A stretch of 64,000 nt of DNA from positions 1-64,000 of the IMG/VR virus record IMGVR_UViG_3300032047_000003, one strand, 5' to 3'. The notes under the pieces were generated by a model. The model had not been told where the DNA came from. It searched no databases and saw only the letters and a program-made list of their open reading frames with translations. The first letter of the stretch is position 1. Every line of letters starts with the position of its first letter. The translations under genes were made by a program, and so were the position numbers. This DNA is from a virus. Shown piece after piece: positions 2,447-11,416 of this stretch.

Positions 2447-3490
2447 ATGGCAATTAAAAAAGTAACTGGAATACCAGAAATAGATGGAATAATTAGCGCT
2501 AGTGCTAAAAAATTTGGAAAAGAATTAGTAAGCATGGGGCCTAAAAAATCACTTTCAGAAGTAAAAGTAATTTCAACCGGTTCCATCTTCTTAGATTGCG
2601 TTTTAGGTTCTGGAGGTTTTCCAGACAACAGAATAATTGAAATCTTTGGACCTCCAAGCGCTGGTAAAACTAGCATCGCTTTACAATTCATGTCAAGATA
2701 CGTAAAAGAAAGAGGGTACGAAAAACCTCCAGTCTTCATCGATCTAGAAAGAACAACAAGCCTTCAATTGGTAGAATCAATGGGAATCGACCCTAACAAA
2801 GTTATTTTCTGTTATCCCGATACCGCTGAAGAAGCATTGGAACTTGCTAAAGATTTAGGAAATACTACTAAAGTTGGCTTTGTAGTATTCGACAGTATTG
2901 ATGCTGCTCAAGCTGAAGCAGACGTTAAACGCGACATGTCTTCTAAAGGAGTAGGTGAACTTGCAAGGCTTCTTTCAAAATCTATGCGAACCTTATCTAA
3001 AGTTGGAGACAACAATGATGTCTGTTTTATTTTTATAAATCAAATCAGAATGAAAATTGGAGTAATGTATGGCAACCCAGAAACTACAAGCGGTGGGAAC
3101 GCTTTGCCCTTTTACTCATCTCTAAGATTGAGAGTAAGCTCTAAGCCTTCTAAAACTCAACCTGGCGCTTTAGATATGAAAATCAAAGTTGTTAAAAACA
3201 AACTTGCTCCAGGCCAAAATGCAACGGCTGAATTTGAATTTGTTTGTGCAAAAGGAATTGAGCCCTACAACGACTTAGTAAGTTATGCTAAAAACCTCGG
3301 CATCTTTAGATTTGCCGGCAGCGCAGTAAAGTTGAAACTTCCAGAACAAGAAGAATACACTATGTGCACCGGAGGCTCAGCAGGATGCATTGGATATCTT
3401 CAAGAAAATCCAGAAATGGAAAATAAAATTAGGAACACCTGTTATCAAATTTCCGGAATAAATCCCCCAGAACAAGAAACACAACAATAA
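2447..3490 (+). CDS. recA: RecA-family recombinase
   Basis: ATP-dependent strand-exchange protein for homologous recombination and probably recombination-dependent replication. It is 347 residues, close to bacterial RecA. Walker A is GPPSAGKTS near residue 68, Walker B-like is [10 protein letters not shown] near residue 145, and loop L2 with the RecA signature is [18 protein letters not shown] near residue 213. An N-terminal alpha/beta segment precedes the core. It is closer to RecA than to T4 UvsX in the L2 and ISTGS motifs. The start has AAGGA about 8 nt upstream. It is followed 8 nt later by the first dnaE fragment, so the two are probably co-transcribed. Confidence 0.93.
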
Positions 3491-3498
3491 GGAAAACA

Positions 3499-4812
3499 AT
3501 GGAAAAAAACGATTTTGTTCATATGCACATGCATACTGAATACTCGCTGCTTGATGGTATTAATCAAGTAGCGAGGTTGCCTCACCATATCGCATCTATG
3601 GGTCAAAAAGCAGTAGCTATTACAGACCATGGGAATGTATCCGGCAGCTACAAGTTCTACAAAGAATGCAAAAGAGCTGGCGTAAAACCCATAATCGGAA
3701 TGGAAGCGTACTATACTGTAGAAGACAGAGCAACTAGAGAAAAAGATGATCTTGGAAACTCTTACTACCATTTAGTCTTGCTTGCAATGAATAATACCGG
3801 TTTGAAAAACTTATACAAACTATCGACGTTTGCATATACTGAAGGAATGTATAGAAAGCCAAGGATAGACGATGCTTTAATTGGAGAATATTCAGAAGGA
3901 ATAATTGCTACTACAGCTTGCCTAGGAAGCAGAATAAGTCAATTGATATTAACAGATAAAATCAAAGAAGCAGAATATGTATTAGATCATCATAGAAATC
4001 TTTTTGACAAAAGGCTTTTGATAGAACTGCAGCTCCACAAAGATCCAGAACAAATTAAAGTAAACAAAGCCCTTCTTGAGTTAGCTGACAAAAAAAACAT
4101 AGAGGTAATTTTAACAAACGATTGCCACTACACGAATGAACATGACAAAATGTTTCATGAAATCGCTCTTTGCATGCAAACTAAAACAACGCTATCCAAC
4201 GAAAAACGATTTACTTTTGGCGACATAGACGTTCACGTTGCCAATCATAACTGGATGGCTGCTAAAGCCGCATGCATGGGAATACCTTATAGAGCTTTAT
4301 CAAATACAGTTGAGTTGGCAAAACTTATCGACAGCAACTCTTATTTTGAAGATAGAAAAAACAGGTATCCTAAATACAAAAATTTCCAATATGCAAAAAA
4401 TAGCTGGGACGAACTTGAGCACATGTGCAAGCGAAAACTTTACAATATGTTTGGAGAAATGCCTCCAGCTGTGTATAGAGAAAGAATTGACTATGAGCTG
4501 TCCATTATAAAGAAAATGGGATTTAGCGACTATATGTTAATCGTCCAAGAGTTCATTGATGGAGCAAGAAGTCTAAACATACCAGTTGGCCCTGGAAGGG
4601 GTTCTGCTGCAGGCAGTCTTGTTTCCTACGCTCTAGGAATAACTAAAGTCGATCCAATAAAATATGGTCTTTTATTTGAAAGATTCCTAAATTACGGAAG
4701 GGGTTCAACTCCAATAATTTTTACAGAACAACAAAAAGCCTACATTAAAGAATCTAGCAATCACACTCACTGCACACACAAACATAAGTGTTCGTGCCCC
4801 GGAGACCACTAA
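3499..4812 (+). CDS. dnaE: DNA polymerase III alpha, fragment 1: PHP domain and first half of palm
   Basis: N-terminal third of a C-family replicative polymerase. Residues 1-270 are the PHP domain. All nine usual metal ligands seem present (H10, H12, D19, H44, E69, H91, C141, D208, H210), so it may be a working proofreading exonuclease; I see no separate DnaQ. Residues 364-382 are the palm motif [19 protein letters not shown], and [13 protein letters not shown] (392-405) leads towards the catalytic loop. At that point homology stops. A tail of about 32 residues follows, ending in a Cys/His-rich stretch ([16 protein letters not shown]). The catalytic aspartates PDIDIDF lie in the next fragment (from 5371). 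The gene ends in a 4-nt tail-to-tail overlap with an antisense gene. No intein motif is visible at its end. Confidence 0.93.
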
Positions 4813-5309
4813 GCAATAAACATGCAACTTATCTTATTAGTGCCACCACTATGAGTAATTTCCAAACTTGTAATTGGCAAATCTCCATAAGAATCATAGC
4901 TATTCCAAGTAGTTCCGGCAGGTTGACTTCCGTCTGCAACTGAAATAGTCAAAGACCCCGGCTTACCACCCCAAACATTTGTGTGTCGGTCTGTTACATT
5001 GTCTGCACCTAAAACAGGTATAGTCAAGCCAGTAGTAGAATCAACTTCTCCGTAACCAAACTCTGGAAGAACGCTAACGTTCCCGTCAATGTCAACTATT
5101 CCAGCTTTAAAAGAAACACTTCTTCTTAAAGCTGAATTCAATACGATGCTTACAGTTTGACTTGCTTCTACTTCAATAATTATTTTAGAAGCGGACTCTC
5201 CTAATAAGCGCAATACGTCAATTTGCGATCCATTTTCAATATCTGTTAACTGAGCAGATAAACCAGCACCTTTAATGCTTGGAACCAATGTGGGACTATA
5301 AGTTGTCAT
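4809..5309 (-). CDS. Virion-like beta-rich protein inside the first dnaE break
   Basis: The 166-residue product is rich in Ser, Thr, Gly, Ile and Val with alternating patterns ([40 protein letters not shown]). It looks like a small beta-sandwich decoration or fibre protein, although I recognise no family. It has a strong AAGGAG 8-10 nt before its ATG, like the virion and small basic genes elsewhere. It lies antisense to the interrupted dnaE locus, converging with fragment 1 and diverging from fragment 2. Placement and strand suggest it arrived as an insertion. The virion role is an inference from composition. Confidence 0.7.
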
Positions 5310-5370
5310 TTAATAAACTCCTTTTTCTTTTATAAAGAAAAATTAATAATTTTTATATAAGGTATTTAAT
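5310..5370. promoter_or_regulatory. Divergent intergenic region between virion-like gene and dnaE fragment 2
   Basis: These 61 bp separate two divergent starts, so they are the only room for a dedicated dnaE fragment 2 promoter and for the antisense gene's promoter. They contain a perfect 9-bp inverted repeat (TTTTTCTTT at 5322-5330, AAAGAAAAA at 5334-5342) and a palindromic TTATATAA (5353-5360) that could act as a -10-like box in either direction. Everything here is A+T only, so promoter calls are tentative. Confidence 0.35.
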
Positions 5371-6987
5371 ATGTTAAACAAAATCAAAAGCTTTTACATA
5401 AGCGAAAGAATAAATAAGGTTGATAAAGATTTTCTTTCATATGAAGAAGACTTTATGACAGAAGACGATGCTTCTATAATAGTATCATTATTAAAGCTCA
5501 ATAGTAAAGCAAAACTTAAAAATACACACAATAGTATTGTTCTTTACTGCACTGGCTTGACAGATGAATTTAATTTTGAAAAAGCAAGATCAAATACAAT
5601 TGATGGCAGTCCTCCAGATATTGATATTGACTTTGATGCACTAAACAGACAGAAAGCTATAGATTGGGTTGTCGAAAAATGGGGTAGAGATAACGTTGCA
5701 AATATTATTACGCACGGAACATTTAAACCTAAAAGCCTAGCAAGAGGTTATTATCGAGTTACTGAAAAAAACTCTCAGCACTTAAATGAAATTCTTCGAG
5801 AAATACCTCAAGCTAAGTTTGGTAAAGAAGCCACTATGGAAGAAATACTTAAAGCTGCCCCTAAACTCAAAACAGAAGAAAAATATTCTGATTTTTTAGA
5901 GTTTTCAGATAGATTAGAAAGCATGGTCTCTACTTTCGGAATTCACGCAGCAGGCGTAGTAATCAGTGATTTCCCTATTCACGATGTAGTTCCCATGTGG
6001 AAAAATTCAAAATCAGAAAGAATTACTCAATTTGATAAAGACGAAACAGAAGAATTGGGTTTGATTAAATTCGACTTTCTTGGCATTGACACCCTTTCAA
6101 TAATTCAAGAATCTATAAACTTGATTAAACAAACAACTGGAGAAGAAATTGACCCCTTTAGTATCTCAGATTACGACAATAAAACATATACTCTTATGCA
6201 ATCTGGACTACTTACTGGTGTTTTCCAAATGGAAACATCTGGAAAAGCCAAGCAACTTATACAAGAAATACATCCTGAAAGCATTTCAGAATTAAGCGAC
6301 ATATCAGCTTTAAATAGACCTGGCCCTATGCAAGCTGGCCTTGATAAAAATTATATCTTAACAAAAAAACAAGGATTCACCTCTCTTGATATGCCAGAGT
6401 CAGTAAAAGAAATCTTAAAAGATACGCAGTACACACTGATTTACCAAGAACAAATTATGGCTCTTTTAAATAAAATGGCCGGATTCTCCCTTAAAGAAGC
6501 CGATGATGCCAGACGTGCAATGGGTAAAAAAAAGAAAGAAGTTTTAGAAAATTACAAAGAAAAATTTATATCCGGATCCCTTAAAAACGGAATTGATGCT
6601 TTTTACTCCAAGTCCCTCTGGGAAGACATTATGGGGTTTGCAGATTATTGCTTGCACGGAGATACAAAAGTTTGGACTCGAGAATTTGGTTACATAAAGA
6701 TAAAAAACATAGTTGACGAAAAGCTAGCTTGTACGGTTGCAAGTTTTAATGGCGAAAATATTATAGAACAAAAAGTGATCCAATACTGGAATAAAGGGAG
6801 CAAAATATGTCACTCTTATGTTATAGAAAATAATAATAATATAAAATGTACTCCAGATCACAAATTCTTAAGAAACACCGGAGAATTGGAAGAGATAGGT
6901 AGAATTTTAACTAAAAATCAACACTTGAAGGAATGCTTTAAAGATGAGTATAATAAATATAGACTTAACGAAAAAATCAATCGGTAA
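5371..6987 (+). CDS. dnaE: DNA polymerase III alpha, fragment 2 (catalytic palm and fingers) fused to N-intein
   Basis: Middle part of the replicase plus half of an intein. Residues 1-79 are an extension that I cannot align to DnaE. From residue 80, SPPDIDIDF carries the two palm aspartates (D83, D85), and KFDFLG gives the third (D235). IHAAGVVIS, TGVFQMETSG, ALNRPGPM and IYQEQIMALL mark the palm and fingers. The extein ends at GFADY (Y426). C427 opens a 112-residue N-intein with block A CLHGDTKVW and block B IKCTPDHKF (T494, H497). The gene alone cannot make a full polymerase: it needs fragment 1 for the PHP domain and trans-splicing to fragment 3 for the rest. An AAGG lies about 10 nt before ATG. 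Confidence 0.93.
   Translation: MLNKIKSFYISERINKVDKDFLSYEEDFMTEDDASIIVSLLKLNSKAKLKNTHNSIVLYCTGLTDEFNFEKARSNTIDGSPPDIDIDFDALNRQKAIDWVVEKWGRDNVANIITHGTFKPKSLARGYYRVTEKNSQHLNEILREIPQAKFGKEATMEEILKAAPKLKTEEKYSDFLEFSDRLESMVSTFGIHAAGVVISDFPIHDVVPMWKNSKSERITQFDKDETEELGLIKFDFLGIDTLSIIQESINLIKQTTGEEIDPFSISDYDNKTYTLMQSGLLTGVFQMETSGKAKQLIQEIHPESISELSDISALNRPGPMQAGLDKNYILTKKQGFTSLDMPESVKEILKDTQYTLIYQEQIMALLNKMAGFSLKEADDARRAMGKKKKEVLENYKEKFISGSLKNGIDAFYSKSLWEDIMGFADYCLHGDTKVWTREFGYIKIKNIVDEKLACTVASFNGENIIEQKVIQYWNKGSKICHSYVIENNNNIKCTPDHKFLRNTGELEEIGRILTKNQHLKECFKDEYNKYRLNEKINR
6649..6984 (+). other. Split intein, N-terminal half (IntN)
   Basis: Codons 427-538 of dnaE fragment 2. Cys1 follows DnaE residues GFADY, the exact insertion site of the cyanobacterial DnaE split intein. 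Block A (CLHGDTKVW) and block B (TPDH) are intact, and length and layout match the roughly 100-residue Npu/Ssp DnaE IntN. It acts in trans with the IntC at 9104. Confidence 0.93.
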
Positions 6988-7237
6988 TCAAAGCGCTATT
7001 TTTTTCAAAAAAGAGGAATTTATTTTAAATCAAAATAATCAAAATCCATTTGTTTTATCAAATAACGCAAAACAAGACTCAGAAACAGTTCATCTGAACG
7101 GACTGTTGTTAAAAGCCAAAAATCCTAATTCCGATTATAGTCTTTCTAATAAAACTTTAAACTTAAATATTGAAACAAATATAGGCGATTTACTTACAAT
7201 CGCTTATGCAACTGCCGACACTAACGGCAGTGAGTAA
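6944..7237 (+). CDS. Small virion-like protein, related to the C-terminus of the next fibre
   Basis: The 97-residue protein overlaps the IntN coding end by 44 nt, with GAAGGA about 11 nt before its ATG. Its C-terminal part has the order VHLNGLLL, then DYSLSN, then GDLLTIAYA. The same order (VTLNGLQL, EEYGVILN, GSDVICIMI) closes the 474-residue fibre encoded next. This NGLxL...DYxL...GDxLxIxY layout is common at the ends of phage fibre and whisker proteins. A fibre cap or accessory role is inferred. The out-of-frame overlap means it was placed right against the intein half. Confidence 0.6.
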   Translation: MSIINIDLTKKSIGNQSAIFFKKEEFILNQNNQNPFVLSNNAKQDSETVHLNGLLLKAKNPNSDYSLSNKTLNLNIETNIGDLLTIAYATADTNGSE

Positions 7238-7269
7238 ATAACAACATAAAATCCTAGGAGGGGTTATAA

Positions 7270-8694
7270 ATGAAAAGAAAATTACAACTTAAGCAAATTG
7301 ACATTACCATTGACAATGGTACTCATATTTCAATTGGCGAAACTGACTTAAAAGACAATTCAAACAATATCATTGGTAGAAAACTTGCAATTGACGACAG
7401 TAGCCTAGTTAGTCAATTAAGTACTTTGCAAAGCAATATCAATGCTGTACAAAGTGATGTCGATGGCAATGAAGCAGATGCTGATAATGCGATTGCAGCA
7501 GTCCAAGCTGACGTTGATCAAAATGAAGCTGATGCTGATACTGCAATTGCTGCAGTACAATCCGATGTTGATGCTAATGAAATAGCTGCCAACAACGCGA
7601 TTGCAGCAGTGCAAGCTGACGTTGACCAAAACGAACTTGATTCTGATGCTGCTGACACTGCTTTAAGCAATCGCCTTACCGTACTTGAAGCTGATCCGAC
7701 TACAAAAACTTATGTAGACGGCCAGATCTCAACAACTCTTGCTTCTGAAATGTCTTACAGAGGCGGAATTGATGCTAGTGCTGCAAATCCTCTTCAGGGC
7801 CTTACTGTAGGTAAAGGTGACATGTGGACTGTAACTACTGCTGGTAGTTCATTTGGAGATGCTCTAGCTGTAGGCGACATGGTTATTGCAGAAGTTGCTA
7901 ACGCTTCTATGAGTGGGCTTTCAGATTTTACTTTAGTTCAAAAGAACTTTGACCTAAGCGCTTATTCTACAACTGTTCAAATGAGTGCAGCAATTGCCGT
8001 TGTCCAATCCGATGTTGATCAAAATGAAGCTGACGCTGACGCAGCAATCGCTGCGCTTCAAGCAGATGTAGATCAAAACGAAGTCGATTCTGATGCTGTG
8101 GACACTGCTATTATAGGCGGTGCAGGGCTTGATGCTAATGGTGGCTATAGCGCTCCAGGTAACCAAGCGGCAAATCCATTTCTTCACAATGCTAGCACTC
8201 TTAAAGATGCTGATACTAAGCTCGAAACTGCAGTAGTAGCCAATGAAACCGAAATCCAAAACCTTGCTCAATCTTTAAGCACGGCATCTGGTTTCGATTA
8301 CTGCGCTTACTACACAATGAATGAAACCGATCTAAATGGTCTTGGCTCTACTCAAAATCCTGAGATTAGATTTCAAAATGCTCCTCTTGCAAATTCCCTT
8401 AAAGGTACTCATACTATCGAGTATGATGATGTTGCTGGAATCCAGCGCGACCAAAGTGGAAATATCGTTAGCCAGCATTCTCAAGAAGTACTATTAGGTA
8501 AAATACTAGTTACTTTGAACGGATTGCAATTGAGAGGTAAAACTGGAAACGTTTTTAATGCAGATCCTGAAGAATACGGTGTCATACTTAACAATAACGC
8601 TACTTCTGGTAAAGATGAGCTTGCCATTGAATTTGCAGAAGGACTACTTGACGGAAGTGACGTAATTTGCATCATGATCTCAAGAGGCATATAA
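7270..8694 (+). CDS. Coiled-coil tail-fibre or whisker-like protein in the intein gap
   Basis: The 474-residue protein has a strong GGAGGGG ribosome site. Residues 56-127 are four 18-residue repeats of the type AIAAVQADVDQNEADADT, and residues 241-276 are two more, consistent with a trimeric coiled-coil shaft. Between them is a fibre module with TYVDGQI, SYRGGIDAS and GKGDMWTVTTAG...VGDMVIAEV, typical of phage fibres. The C-terminal 80 residues form a beta-rich NGLQL/DVICIM cap. It is probably a virion appendage. It is the only clearly late-type gene in the + strand replication block and ends 38 nt before a strong terminator, so it looks like a self-contained cassette. Confidence 0.75.
   Translation: MKRKLQLKQIDITIDNGTHISIGETDLKDNSNNIIGRKLAIDDSSLVSQLSTLQSNINAVQSDVDGNEADADNAIAAVQADVDQNEADADTAIAAVQSDVDANEIAANNAIAAVQADVDQNELDSDAADTALSNRLTVLEADPTTKTYVDGQISTTLASEMSYRGGIDASAANPLQGLTVGKGDMWTVTTAGSSFGDALAVGDMVIAEVANASMSGLSDFTLVQKNFDLSAYSTTVQMSAAIAVVQSDVDQNEADADAAIAALQADVDQNEVDSDAVDTAIIGGAGLDANGGYSAPGNQAANPFLHNASTLKDADTKLETAVVANETEIQNLAQSLSTASGFDYCAYYTMNETDLNGLGSTQNPEIRFQNAPLANSLKGTHTIEYDDVAGIQRDQSGNIVSQHSQEVLLGKILVTLNGLQLRGKTGNVFNADPEEYGVILNNNATSGKDELAIEFAEGLLDGSDVICIMISRGI
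7435..7650 (+). repeat. Four in-frame 54-bp repeats in fibre gene
   Basis: Tandem 54-nt units encoding 18 residues with core AVQxDVDxNExxA. The protein copies are better conserved than the DNA, so they are under coding selection and not simple satellite DNA. Confidence 0.85.
7990..8097 (+). repeat. Two further copies of the 54-bp fibre repeat
   Basis: A second block of the same 18-residue unit (residues 241-276), 340 bp after the first block. The two blocks flank the globular YVDGQI/GDMWTV module, suggesting that the module was inserted into one shaft or that the shaft was duplicated. Confidence 0.85.
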
Positions 8695-8732
8695 TATAAC
8701 ATAATATAATAACGTAAAAACTATTGCGTTAG

Positions 8733-8763
8733 CCCCTCGTTGAAAAGCGAGGGGTTTTTTTTT
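8733..8763 (+). terminator. Strong intrinsic terminator after the fibre gene
   Basis: CCCCTCG pairs with CGAGGGG and extends through T-A and T-G pairs to a GAAA tetraloop, followed by nine T residues. It is the best terminator in the window. It separates dnaE fragments 1-2 and the fibre from dnaE fragment 3 and all downstream replication genes. Confidence 0.93.
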
Positions 8764-8778
8764 ACTTAAGGAGTAAAT

Positions 8779-9120
8779 ATGACATTCTTACAAAAAATAA
8801 ACTTGTACTACATACTGTTTTCTACCTGGCTGAAATTTTTCTTTTTATTAATAAGAAGTGATAAGAAATTTCTATTCCTACCAGAAGGCGGAACCAAAAA
8901 AATAAAGCTAATGGCAAGACCTTACATGTTGGAAGAAAAGAAAGAACGCAAAGGTCTCAAAGATAAAACAAAAACAGTCACGTACATAAACGCACTAAGT
9001 AAAACTTTAACAAGAGATGAAAATCAAAAAGAAAATTTTAAAAAATTATTAGAATATACTTTTTTATGGTATTGTTTTGAGCAACACATGGAGTTCCAAA
9101 AAGATGAAGATCAAAGCTAG
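8779..9120 (+). CDS. 113-residue basic hypothetical protein upstream of IntC
   Basis: Unknown. It has a strong AAGGAG 6 nt before ATG and starts only 16 nt after the terminator. A hydrophobic N-terminal segment (residues 8-27, with several Phe and Leu) could be a membrane anchor or signal-like helix. It is followed by a Lys/Glu-rich helical region and a short aromatic stretch (YTFLWYCFEQH). I see no HNH, GIY-YIG or LAGLIDADG motif, so it is not a recognisable homing endonuclease. Its last 17 nt overlap the IntC start. Confidence 0.6.
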   Translation: MTFLQKINLYYILFSTWLKFFFLLIRSDKKFLFLPEGGTKKIKLMARPYMLEEKKERKGLKDKTKTVTYINALSKTLTRDENQKENFKKLLEYTFLWYCFEQHMEFQKDEDQS

Positions 9121-9208
9121 CGAAAACATTGGTTATCATGATGTTTTCGATATTGGCCTTGCTGGCCCACACAACTTTCTCATAGAAGGTGGAATTTTTG
9201 CTTCTAAC
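9104..9208 (+). other. Split intein, C-terminal half (IntC)
   Basis: Codons 1-35 of dnaE fragment 3. Block F is DVFDIGLAGPHNF, block G ends in Ser-Asn, and the +1 residue is Cys, the standard class 1 splice junction. Length (35) and sequence match the cyanobacterial DnaE IntC, which is normally about 36 residues. Confidence 0.94.
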
Positions 9209-10330
9209 TGTTTCAATAAGTCCCACTCTATAGCATACTCCTACTTGACTTATATAACTGCTTACTTAAAAGCAAACTACCCTTGTCAATTCTTTTGCGC
9301 TTTAATGACAACTAGATCTAAATCTTTACAACCTAAAGATTGGGCTCAAAAAGCACCTCAATATGTCAATGAAGCAAGACAGCTAGGAGTAGAAATAAAT
9401 GCACCTAGCGTTAACGCTTCAAATTTAGAATTTACAATATCTCAAAATGAGATATATTTTGGATTAAACGCAATACGAGATGTAGGTAAAACAGCAGCTA
9501 AAAGTATAATGGCGGCAAGGGGAAATACTCCATTTAAAGACGTTTTCGATTTTGTTTCTAGAGTTAATACTCAAAAAGTAAATATAAAAACATTTGTTTC
9601 CCTTGTTAAAGCTGGCGCTTTTGATAAAATGGGCTATTGCAGAATAGAACTTTTAGAAATTTCACAACAGATATACGACTATTACAAAGATATTCAAGAA
9701 TACGCTCAAAGGATTCTTGATATCCAAGAAAGAAACGATTATAACAATATAGTAATTCCCAAAATAGAACGCAGAAATGAACTGCGAAAAATCTACAAAT
9801 CTGAAACCAATAGAAGACTTAAGGAAAAGCAAAAGCTTTCTGAAGCAGACTACACTAAAGTGCAAGTGGAACTAGAAGAGCTTGAAGCGTTAAACCTTAA
9901 AAAGAAAGTTTCGTTAAAAGAGAAAAACGAACCCGTAAAACCAAATGTAACAAAATATCAAAAAATAAAAATAACTCTTGCTCAAATCATTGAACAAGCT
10001 AACTACATAGGTTGTTATTTACAGACTCATCCTGCACAATTTATACAAACTAAAAATAAAATTCAAAACATGAATATAAATCAATATGGTAAAATAGCTG
10101 CAGTAGTTACATCTTTAAAAGAAATAACTACAAAAAAGAATCAAAAAATGGCTTTTTTAGAATTAGATGACTCTCAAACTATATGCGAAGCAGTTATATT
10201 TCCAAGAAGCTATCAAAAAATAATGAATCTAGATCTTAAACAAGGTGAACTTATCATGGCAGAAGTAAAAGTCCAATCTACCGATCCCTATAAGCTCATT
10301 GTCAATAAGATCAATATATATCAAGGATAA
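9104..10330 (+). CDS. dnaE: C-intein fused to DNA polymerase III alpha, fragment 3
   Basis: The 408-residue product begins with a 35-residue IntC (MKIKASENIGYHDVFDIG, then HNFLIEGGIFASN) and continues at C36 with CFNKSHSIAYSYLTYITAYL, the conserved start of the DnaE C-extein. Next come a helix-hairpin-helix region (FGLNAIRDVGKTAAKSI), a long charged coiled coil (about residues 170-260) and an OB fold (GKIAAVVTSLKEITT...KMAFLELDD, near residue 330). The protein stops after the OB fold, so the tau-binding tail of bacterial DnaE is missing. ATG at 9104 is chosen because GGAG lies 10 nt upstream and it matches the usual IntC start. Trans-splicing with IntN should join Y426 of fragment 2 to C36. 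Confidence 0.94.
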   Translation: MKIKASENIGYHDVFDIGLAGPHNFLIEGGIFASNCFNKSHSIAYSYLTYITAYLKANYPCQFFCALMTTRSKSLQPKDWAQKAPQYVNEARQLGVEINAPSVNASNLEFTISQNEIYFGLNAIRDVGKTAAKSIMAARGNTPFKDVFDFVSRVNTQKVNIKTFVSLVKAGAFDKMGYCRIELLEISQQIYDYYKDIQEYAQRILDIQERNDYNNIVIPKIERRNELRKIYKSETNRRLKEKQKLSEADYTKVQVELEELEALNLKKKVSLKEKNEPVKPNVTKYQKIKITLAQIIEQANYIGCYLQTHPAQFIQTKNKIQNMNINQYGKIAAVVTSLKEITTKKNQKMAFLELDDSQTICEAVIFPRSYQKIMNLDLKQGELIMAEVKVQSTDPYKLIVNKINIYQG

Positions 10331-10336
10331 AAAACA

Positions 10337-11416
10337 ATGTCTAAATGGAACGAAGAAGAAGAGCACTTGCTTAAGACCTTAATAAGTACCAAATCCTATG
10401 AAGAAATTTTTTATGCATTTAAAGAAAGACACTCTAAGTGTTTGCCTGGGTTTAAAAAATTTAGATCTTTAAGAGCTATAACTAAAAAATGCGAAAAACA
10501 ATCTATTACACCTCAAAAATATAAAAAATACGAAGACCCTTACAAAAAGCGTTGGGAGAGAATAAAAGATATAACAAAAGAATATAAAGAAAAATCTGAA
10601 AGTTATTCCGTTGGAGTAAATGTAGATGTTTCTAGAAAAATACTTTGCTTATCAGATATACACTTCCCTTTTTCCTTAGAAGATGAATTAAAAAAAGCAT
10701 TAGAAGAGCATGCAGATTCCGATATTGTTGTTTTGAATGGAGACATTCTTGATGGATATATATACTCTACTTTTGCTAAAGCTAAAAGGATTGCTGCTTT
10801 AAAAGAGTATATGGCTGCTTTCGAACTAGTAGAATATTGTTCTCTTAATTTCCCTAAAGTTGTAATAGTAGCTGGAAATCACGACATAAGACCAGCAAGA
10901 GCATTGGCTTCTGCTGGCTTTGAAAAAGAAGAATCTCAAGTTTTAAGACCAGATCTTTTAGCAAGAATTGCTAATGGAGAAAAATTAAACGAAGAAGGAG
11001 ATTTAATAAAAAAACTTGATTTTTCAAATGTTTTCTATGAAAAATATGACGCTTGGTATGTCAGGATAGGTAAAACAATATTTGCTCATCCCTCTGGTTA
11101 CAGAGGTGGCCCTGGTGGAACCGCTCAAAAGCTTTATGAATATTTTATAAAAAGAATGGGAAGTGATGACTTCGACAGTATAGTCGTAGGCCATACTCAT
11201 AAAATTTACAAAGGTGTTTTTTGTAACAAGCTTTTAATAGAACAGGGCGCCATGTGCGACAGACAGCCTTATCAACATAAACCTAATTTAAGATTCCTTC
11301 ATGCTATGAATGGATATTGCATCGTGTATCAAGACAAAGACGGAAATACAGACTTTAATAAAACAACTCCAATATACTTAGGCAGTATGCTGCCTCCAAA
11401 AAAAGGAATACTATGA
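10337..11416 (+). CDS. Calcineurin-like metallophosphoesterase
   Basis: The 359-residue protein has the full metallophosphoesterase motif set: SDIHF (DxH), NGDILDG (GDxxD), AGNHD (GNHD), an AHPSG histidine and VGHTH near the C-terminus, which together bind two metal ions. Residues 1-90 are a basic extension starting KWNEEEEHLLKTL and resembling a Myb/SANT-type helical DNA-binding unit. Substrate is unknown: phage relatives may act on nucleic acid ends or on nucleotides. It lies directly after dnaE fragment 3 with AAGGA before ATG, so a role in DNA processing is plausible. Confidence 0.85.
   Translation: MSKWNEEEEHLLKTLISTKSYEEIFYAFKERHSKCLPGFKKFRSLRAITKKCEKQSITPQKYKKYEDPYKKRWERIKDITKEYKEKSESYSVGVNVDVSRKILCLSDIHFPFSLEDELKKALEEHADSDIVVLNGDILDGYIYSTFAKAKRIAALKEYMAAFELVEYCSLNFPKVVIVAGNHDIRPARALASAGFEKEESQVLRPDLLARIANGEKLNEEGDLIKKLDFSNVFYEKYDAWYVRIGKTIFAHPSGYRGGPGGTAQKLYEYFIKRMGSDDFDSIVVGHTHKIYKGVFCNKLLIEQGAMCDRQPYQHKPNLRFLHAMNGYCIVYQDKDGNTDFNKTTPIYLGSMLPPKKGIL

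What the first reader, a model, noticed from the sequence alone, without database searches (positions are those of the whole stretch)
4690..5613. First dnaE break: overlapping palm motif but no intein signature
Fragment 1 ends its DnaE homology at [13 protein letters not shown], and fragment 2 restarts at GSPPDIDIDF, so about four motif residues (GSTP/GSPP) are duplicated. Each side carries unique sequence: a 32-residue Cys/His-rich tail on fragment 1 and a 79-residue extension on fragment 2. The break lies just before the catalytic aspartates. The extensions may be docking domains replacing covalent linkage, or a strongly diverged split intein.
Basis: partly seen in the sequence, partly recalled or inferred. 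Interest (0 to 1): 0.8.

Follow-up and report, generated by a model that had tools for sequence, protein, structure and literature searches.

The report
DNA polymerase split inside its palm
A family of uncultured phages makes its replicative DNA polymerase as separate proteins, cut inside the catalytic palm between the nucleotide-binding motif and the catalytic aspartates; the extra sequence beside the cut is not an intein but appears to be a worn-down second copy of that part of the palm.

Summary
The break is real. Fragment 1 (3499-4812) stops 32 residues after [13 protein letters not shown]; fragment 2 (5371-6987) restarts with a 78-residue extension before GSPPDIDIDF; a small antisense gene (4809-5309) lies between. 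All 13 related contigs keep the break, with both end pieces conserved. Intein and RNA-family models find nothing here, while the second dnaE break scores as a normal split intein, so a diverged split intein is disfavoured. The extension is probably not a newly acquired docking domain: a bridging phage (L112) and a clade of unsplit phage DnaEs carry a related ~110-residue segment exactly where the window is broken, and it resembles, collinearly, the palm segment that precedes the catalytic aspartates. Likely history: partial palm duplication, complementary decay (fragment 1 keeps the GS motif, fragment 2 the aspartates), fission between the copies, then insertion of other genes. Fragments 1 and 2 most likely assemble non-covalently; this is inferred, and the AlphaFold model is only weakly supportive. 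Split phage polymerases are known (gp43A/B, actinophage DnaE), but I found none with this break inside the palm.

The parts
3499..4812 (+). dnaE fragment 1: PHP domain plus first part of the palm with the GS motif
   Evidence: PF02811 and PF07733 positions 2-104; TIGR00594 1-401
4588..4617 (+). GS motif [10 protein letters not shown] of the palm, kept in fragment 1
   Evidence: sequence; identical in nearly all relatives
4714..4809 (+). 32-residue tail of fragment 1 (clade consensus (A)TP-LIF[DN]..M...I; CxHxH end in 7 of 13 members)
   Evidence: purifying selection in close pairs
4809..5309 (-). antisense ORF of 166 aa between the fragments; a family present at this place in most relatives, function unknown
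   Evidence: no Pfam or PHROG match
5371..6987 (+). dnaE fragment 2: extension, catalytic palm, fingers start, N-terminal half of a split intein
   Evidence: PF07733 99-260, PF17657, TIGR01445
5371..5616 (+). extension of fragment 2 (to the proline before DIDIDF), proposed degenerate second copy of the palm segment
   Evidence: conserved in 12 relatives; hhalign to L112 P 2.5e-6; L112 to palm P 2e-7
5614..5634 (+). PDIDIDF: the first two catalytic aspartates, in fragment 2
   Evidence: sequence; DnaE alignment
6649..6984 (+). N-terminal half of a split intein at the second break (positive control)
   Evidence: TIGR01445 E 2.9e-14
9104..10330 (+). C-terminal intein half (to 9208) and dnaE fragment 3
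   Evidence: TIGR01443 E 1.5e-4; PF14579, PF01336

Best explanation
The window encodes the only recognisable DNA polymerase of the record, a family C (DnaE) enzyme, in three genes. Fragments 2 and 3 are joined by an ordinary split intein. Fragments 1 and 2 are not spliced; they associate non-covalently so that the GS motif of fragment 1 and the catalytic aspartates of fragment 2 form one palm. The extra sequence at this break comes from an ancestral tandem duplication of the palm segment: the upstream copy (fragment 1) kept the GS motif and has no catalytic aspartates, the downstream copy (fragment 2) kept the aspartates and lost the GS motif. Fission fell between the two copies and other genes later settled in the gap. 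Shown: the split, its conservation, absence of detectable intein or intron, unsplit relatives with an insert at the same point, and the similarity chain extension - L112 - palm. Inferred: order of events, non-covalent assembly, and the role of the degenerate copy (probably packing against fragment 1).
For: Same break in 13 related contigs, tail and extension under purifying selection. No intein or RNA-family hit at break 1, both intein halves recognised at break 2. Only DnaE pieces, no PolA or PolB, in the 111.6 kb record. 24 unsplit phage DnaE loci carry a 109-113 residue insert at the same point where other DnaEs have about 7 residues. hhalign: extension-L112 P 2.5e-6, L112-insert P 2.9e-8, L112-canonical palm P 2e-7 collinear, insert-palm P 1.6e-4; 0 of 100 column shuffles as high in each. 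One clade for all three not rejected and slightly more likely. Both halves of the palm keep their own motifs. In the AlphaFold read-through model, PolC superposes over 443-460 residues spanning both fragments at 3.1-3.3 A. Precedent for non-covalent split phage enzymes: gp43A/B and NrdA-a/b (PMC2988022).
Against: The window clade's own extension is only weakly palm-like (P 0.0017; BLAST no better than E 0.09), so the duplication rests on one bridging locus, L112. The tail's resemblance to a PDIDIDF without aspartates is marginal (p 0.048). In the same AlphaFold model the full DnaE superposition is poor (rmsd 14-18 A). No direct evidence of a complex. The gathered record may be incomplete.
Confidence: 0.68

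Rival explanations
1. The two ends are docking modules of independent origin (for example left by an inserted mobile element) that hold the halves together, with no palm duplication; the palm-like look of L112 is convergence or chance.
For: Both ends are conserved. Tails derived from an element at a split are known to me for Aeh1 NrdA (own knowledge). Group I introns and LAGLIDADG-like ORFs invade dnaE in this clade. The extension alone hardly resembles the palm.
Against: A related segment sits inside unsplit DnaEs at the same point; the L112 bridge aligns collinearly with the palm and beats all shuffles.
Confidence: 0.17
2. A strongly diverged or novel split intein, or another protein-joining element, ligates fragments 1 and 2.
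For: A working split intein lies next door at break 2; the extension ends in [DNE][TS] before GSPP, faintly like a C-terminal splice site.
Against: No intein model hit at E 10 on tail or extension; no Cys/Ser block A; the terminal residue is D, N or E, not conserved; the fragment 1 homology runs through the proline before the aspartates, so joining would leave duplicated residues; a related segment stays in intact proteins.
Confidence: 0.04
3. Fragment 2 (with its own degenerate palm copy) plus fragment 3 is a self-sufficient polymerase, and fragment 1 is a separate PHP-domain nuclease or accessory.
For: Fragment 2 holds the catalytic aspartates and a palm-like upstream segment; actinophages encode the PHP part as a separate gene.
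Against: The GS motif is lost in fragment 2 and strictly kept in fragment 1, which ends far beyond PHP, after the GS helix and FERFLN. In the unsplit homologue model the upstream copy folds confidently in the palm and the insert does not.
Confidence: 0.09
4. Assembly artefact or decaying pseudogene.
For: The gene is interrupted twice and by antisense DNA.
Against: Same break in 13 independent contigs with purifying selection; no other polymerase family found in the record.
Confidence: 0.02

Closest known systems
Split family B polymerase gp43A/gp43B of Aeromonas phages 25 and 44RR (PMC2988022)
   Same: Replicative phage polymerase in two genes; the products co-purify and are active, per that review
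   Different: Family B, not C; associated there with a seg endonuclease or an untranslated intercistronic sequence; no duplicated palm reported
NrdA-a/NrdA-b of Aeromonas phage Aeh1 (PMC2988022, PMC3653736)
   Same: Essential phage enzyme in pieces without an intron, still functional
   Different: Ribonucleotide reductase; split by the mobE homing endonuclease gene, which is absent at the window's break
Split DnaE genes of actinophages (Terapin, Candle, CoolCookie, ChewyVIII) and of Rossellomorea phage phiT1
   Same: DnaE in two adjacent phage genes
   Different: Actinophages are cut between PHP and palm, phiT1 further downstream; the GS motif and first aspartates stay in one protein
Cyanobacterial-type DnaE split intein
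   Same: Break 2 of the window (GFADYC / CFNKSHS) is of this kind
   Different: Break 1 shows none of its features
Unsplit phage DnaE with ~110-residue palm insert (L133, L153, L162, L255-L278)
   Same: Related segment at exactly the point of the break
   Different: One continuous protein; GS motif varied (GIRGSGVGS)

Membership tests
Family C DNA polymerase (DnaE) | PHP, palm with GS motif, catalytic Asp motif, fingers | tested here: met
   Pfam and TIGR00594 matches spread over fragments 1-3
Family C DNA polymerase (DnaE) | Polymerase activity | not testable with these tools
   needs expression
Split intein at break 1 | Intein N- and C-terminal splicing blocks | tested here: not met
   No hit at E 10, break 2 positive
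Split intein at break 1 | Conserved terminal Asn followed by Cys, Ser or Thr | tested here: not met
   D, N or E before T/S; not conserved
Group I or II intron at break 1 | Covariance-model match | tested here: not met
   None in 3400-10500; the same library finds introns in L091-L094
Non-covalent enzyme in pieces (gp43A/B, NrdA-a/b type) | Complementary halves in separate conserved genes, no joining element | tested here: met
Non-covalent enzyme in pieces (gp43A/B, NrdA-a/b type) | Halves associate and are active together | tested here: inconclusive
   AlphaFold read-through: PolC fits at 3.1 A over 459 residues, full DnaE poorly
Tandem palm duplication | Extension or insert homologous and collinear to the palm segment before the catalytic Asp | tested here: met
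   Through L112 (P 2e-7) and the insert clade (P 1.6e-4), 0 of 100 shuffles; weak for the window clade's extension alone

The most novel reading that the evidence does not exclude
The palm segment of a replicative polymerase was duplicated and its copies subfunctionalised, one keeping the nucleotide-binding GS motif, the other the catalytic aspartates. After fission, the degenerate copy in fragment 2 acts as a placeholder that shields the catalytic strand until fragment 1 displaces or packs against it, so that activity is switched on by subunit assembly.
Probability: 0.2. Interest if true: 0.8.

Novelty: new variant of a known kind. Interest (0 to 1): 0.6.

Why it matters
It gives a traceable series (unsplit with palm insert; split with abutting genes; split with inserted genes) for how an essential catalytic domain can be cut between its active-site motifs and survive, and suggests that an internal duplication before fission made the cut tolerable. 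It also adds a natural split point inside the palm to the known split polymerases, which can be tested directly.

Tried and rejected
Intein models on tail and extension: negative, with the second break as positive control. Rfam introns at the break: none. tblastn of the extension, and of L112's extension, against named phages: no match. L162's insert region matched named phages only weakly (E 1e-3 to 2e-5), in stretches that include the shared PDVD part. Reading L093's PPDCDM as a variant motif: rejected, it is intron sequence after GAT. Alignments A7 and A9 for modelling were discarded because fragment 2 rows were laid on fragment 1. AlphaFold of the joined halves by reading through the stops between them: each half folds, mutual placement uncertain. 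Tail as a PDIDIDF that lost its aspartates: only p 0.048, left open. Promoter and terminator scan around the break: near chance. Frameshift error as cause of L112's split: unlikely, the junction is a clean TAA-T-ATG.

Full report
1. Observation. Fragment 1 (3499-4812) ends its DnaE homology at [13 protein letters not shown] and adds 32 residues; fragment 2 (5371-6987) has 78 residues before GSPPDIDIDF. Pfam DNA_pol3_alpha stops at position ~104 of 260 in fragment 1 and resumes at 99 in fragment 2. Between them lies an antisense ORF of 166 aa (4809-5309). The window lies in a 111,567-base virus record in which these pieces are the only DnaE, and no PolA or PolB is found; the record may be incomplete.

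2. Conservation. IMG/VR scans gave 13 other contigs of the same clade: L001, L003, L004, L086, L087, L088, L091-L095, L166, L167. L003 shows only the fragment 2 side and L087 only the fragment 1 side. The break is present in all. Fragment 1 ends with a tail of consensus (A)TP-LIF[DN]..M...I, closing with C.H.H in 7 of 13 members; fragment 2 starts with a conserved extension ending NSILLY..GLTDEFDF.KARSDTIGGSPPDIDIDF. Pairs show purifying selection: tails pS 0.66-0.99 against pN 0.20-0.52 (weakest for window-L001), extensions pS 0.56-0.74 against pN 0.24-0.35. The gap runs from 272 to 4514 bases and usually holds an antisense gene related to the window's.

3. Not an intein, not an intron. The second dnaE break is a canonical split intein (TIGR01445 2.9e-14, TIGR01443 1.5e-4), which serves as positive control. 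Tail and extension give no intein hit even at E 10, and Rfam finds no intron in 3400-10500. Group I introns do exist in this clade, at the PDIDIDF codons (GAT^ATTGAC) in L092 and L093 and at RRAMG in L091 and L094, but not at break 1.

4. What the extension is. In the loci gathered, the distance between FERFL and PD.D is 5-20 residues, modal 7 (166 ORFs), except in a group of intact phage DnaEs with 114-115 (two further values, 58 and 73, are pattern artefacts). A further scan brought 24 loci of this group, some repeats of the first ten, all unsplit. The window's tail plus extension has about the same length and the same position. L112 is also split here, with abutting genes (TAATATG), and its fragment 2 extension is a bridge: hhalign to the window clade's extensions P 2.5e-6, to the unsplit inserts P 2.9e-8, to 107 canonical palm segments P 2e-7, collinear up to the GS helix and CLGIT..DP (BLAST E 9e-5). 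The insert clade aligns collinearly to the palm (P 1.6e-4). In each of these comparisons 0 of 100 column-shuffled profiles scored as high; an earlier, thinner insert profile against the palm was exceeded by 1 of 100. The window clade's extension alone is only weakly palm-like (P 0.0017, BLAST no better than E 0.09), so the duplication claim depends on the bridge. MAFFT, unprompted, also laid the extensions on the palm and the fragment 1 tail on PDIDIDF minus its aspartates; the latter is marginal when tested (p 0.048).

5. History. In a 63-row tree the window clade is one group (support 100), L112 its sister (83), and the insert clade lies close; holding all three together raises the likelihood by 2.3 units and is not rejected (AU p 0.564). 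The simplest order is duplication of the palm segment, complementary decay (GS motif kept upstream, aspartates kept downstream), fission between the copies, then insertion of antisense genes. This order is inferred, not proved.

6. Mechanism. GS motif and catalytic aspartates are on different chains, both conserved, in the only recognisable polymerase of the record, with no splicing element found. Non-covalent assembly is therefore the most likely working, as reported for gp43A/43B of Aeromonas phage 25 and NrdA-a/b of Aeh1 (PMC2988022; PMC3653736). Structure modelling is only weakly supportive. The unsplit homologue L162 folds as DnaE (TM 0.72-0.76, normalised by the query) with the upstream palm copy mostly confident and the insert at pLDDT about 40-65. 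The window's two halves, joined by reading the stops between them as glycine, each fold, including the extension at pLDDT about 76-90 as a small helical unit. PolC superposes on 443-460 residues at 3.1-3.3 A over a range that spans both fragments, which suggests that the two palm parts were brought together, although the tool gives ranges and not residue pairs; the full DnaE superposition is poor (rmsd 14-18 A), so the whole arrangement is not established.

7. Relation to known systems. Split DnaE genes exist in named phages, but Terapin, Candle, CoolCookie and ChewyVIII are cut between PHP and palm, and phiT1 further downstream. A 2026 survey of bacterial DNA polymerases gave no passage on split DnaE in a term search of its text (PMC12926913). 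I found no description of a cut between GS motif and catalytic aspartates, nor of a duplicated palm segment, in what could be searched; most subscription papers are not in the library. Hence: a new variant of a known kind (enzyme in pieces), with an unusual break site and a probable origin in a duplicated palm.

Noticed in passing
L092:9520-10600 and L093:12970-13330: Group I introns interrupt fragment 2 at the same site, GAT^ATTGAC, inside the catalytic PDIDIDF codons; L092's carries a LAGLIDADG-like ORF.
   Followed up: partly
L091:13175-13503 and L094:11984-12220: Group I introns interrupt dnaE at the RRAMG motif of the fingers.
   Followed up: no
window 4714-4809; L166:5400-5460; L167:5030-5080: A CxHxH motif closes fragment 1 in 7 of 13 members; L166 and L167 lack it but have a Cys/His-rich N-terminus on fragment 1, as if a metal-binding motif had changed ends.
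   Followed up: no
window 4809-5309 (-), 6944-8694 (+): Both dnaE breaks hold small or repetitive virion-like genes rather than homing endonucleases; the antisense 166-aa family has no Pfam or PHROG match.
   Followed up: partly
L167:3698-5073: The RecA-like gene seems interrupted: only its C-terminal half is read at 4537-5073, next to an endonuclease-like ORF (3698-4528).
   Followed up: no
L255-L278: DnaE with a ~110-residue palm insert occurs in uncultured virus contigs up to 479 kb; no close named phage was found.
   Followed up: partly
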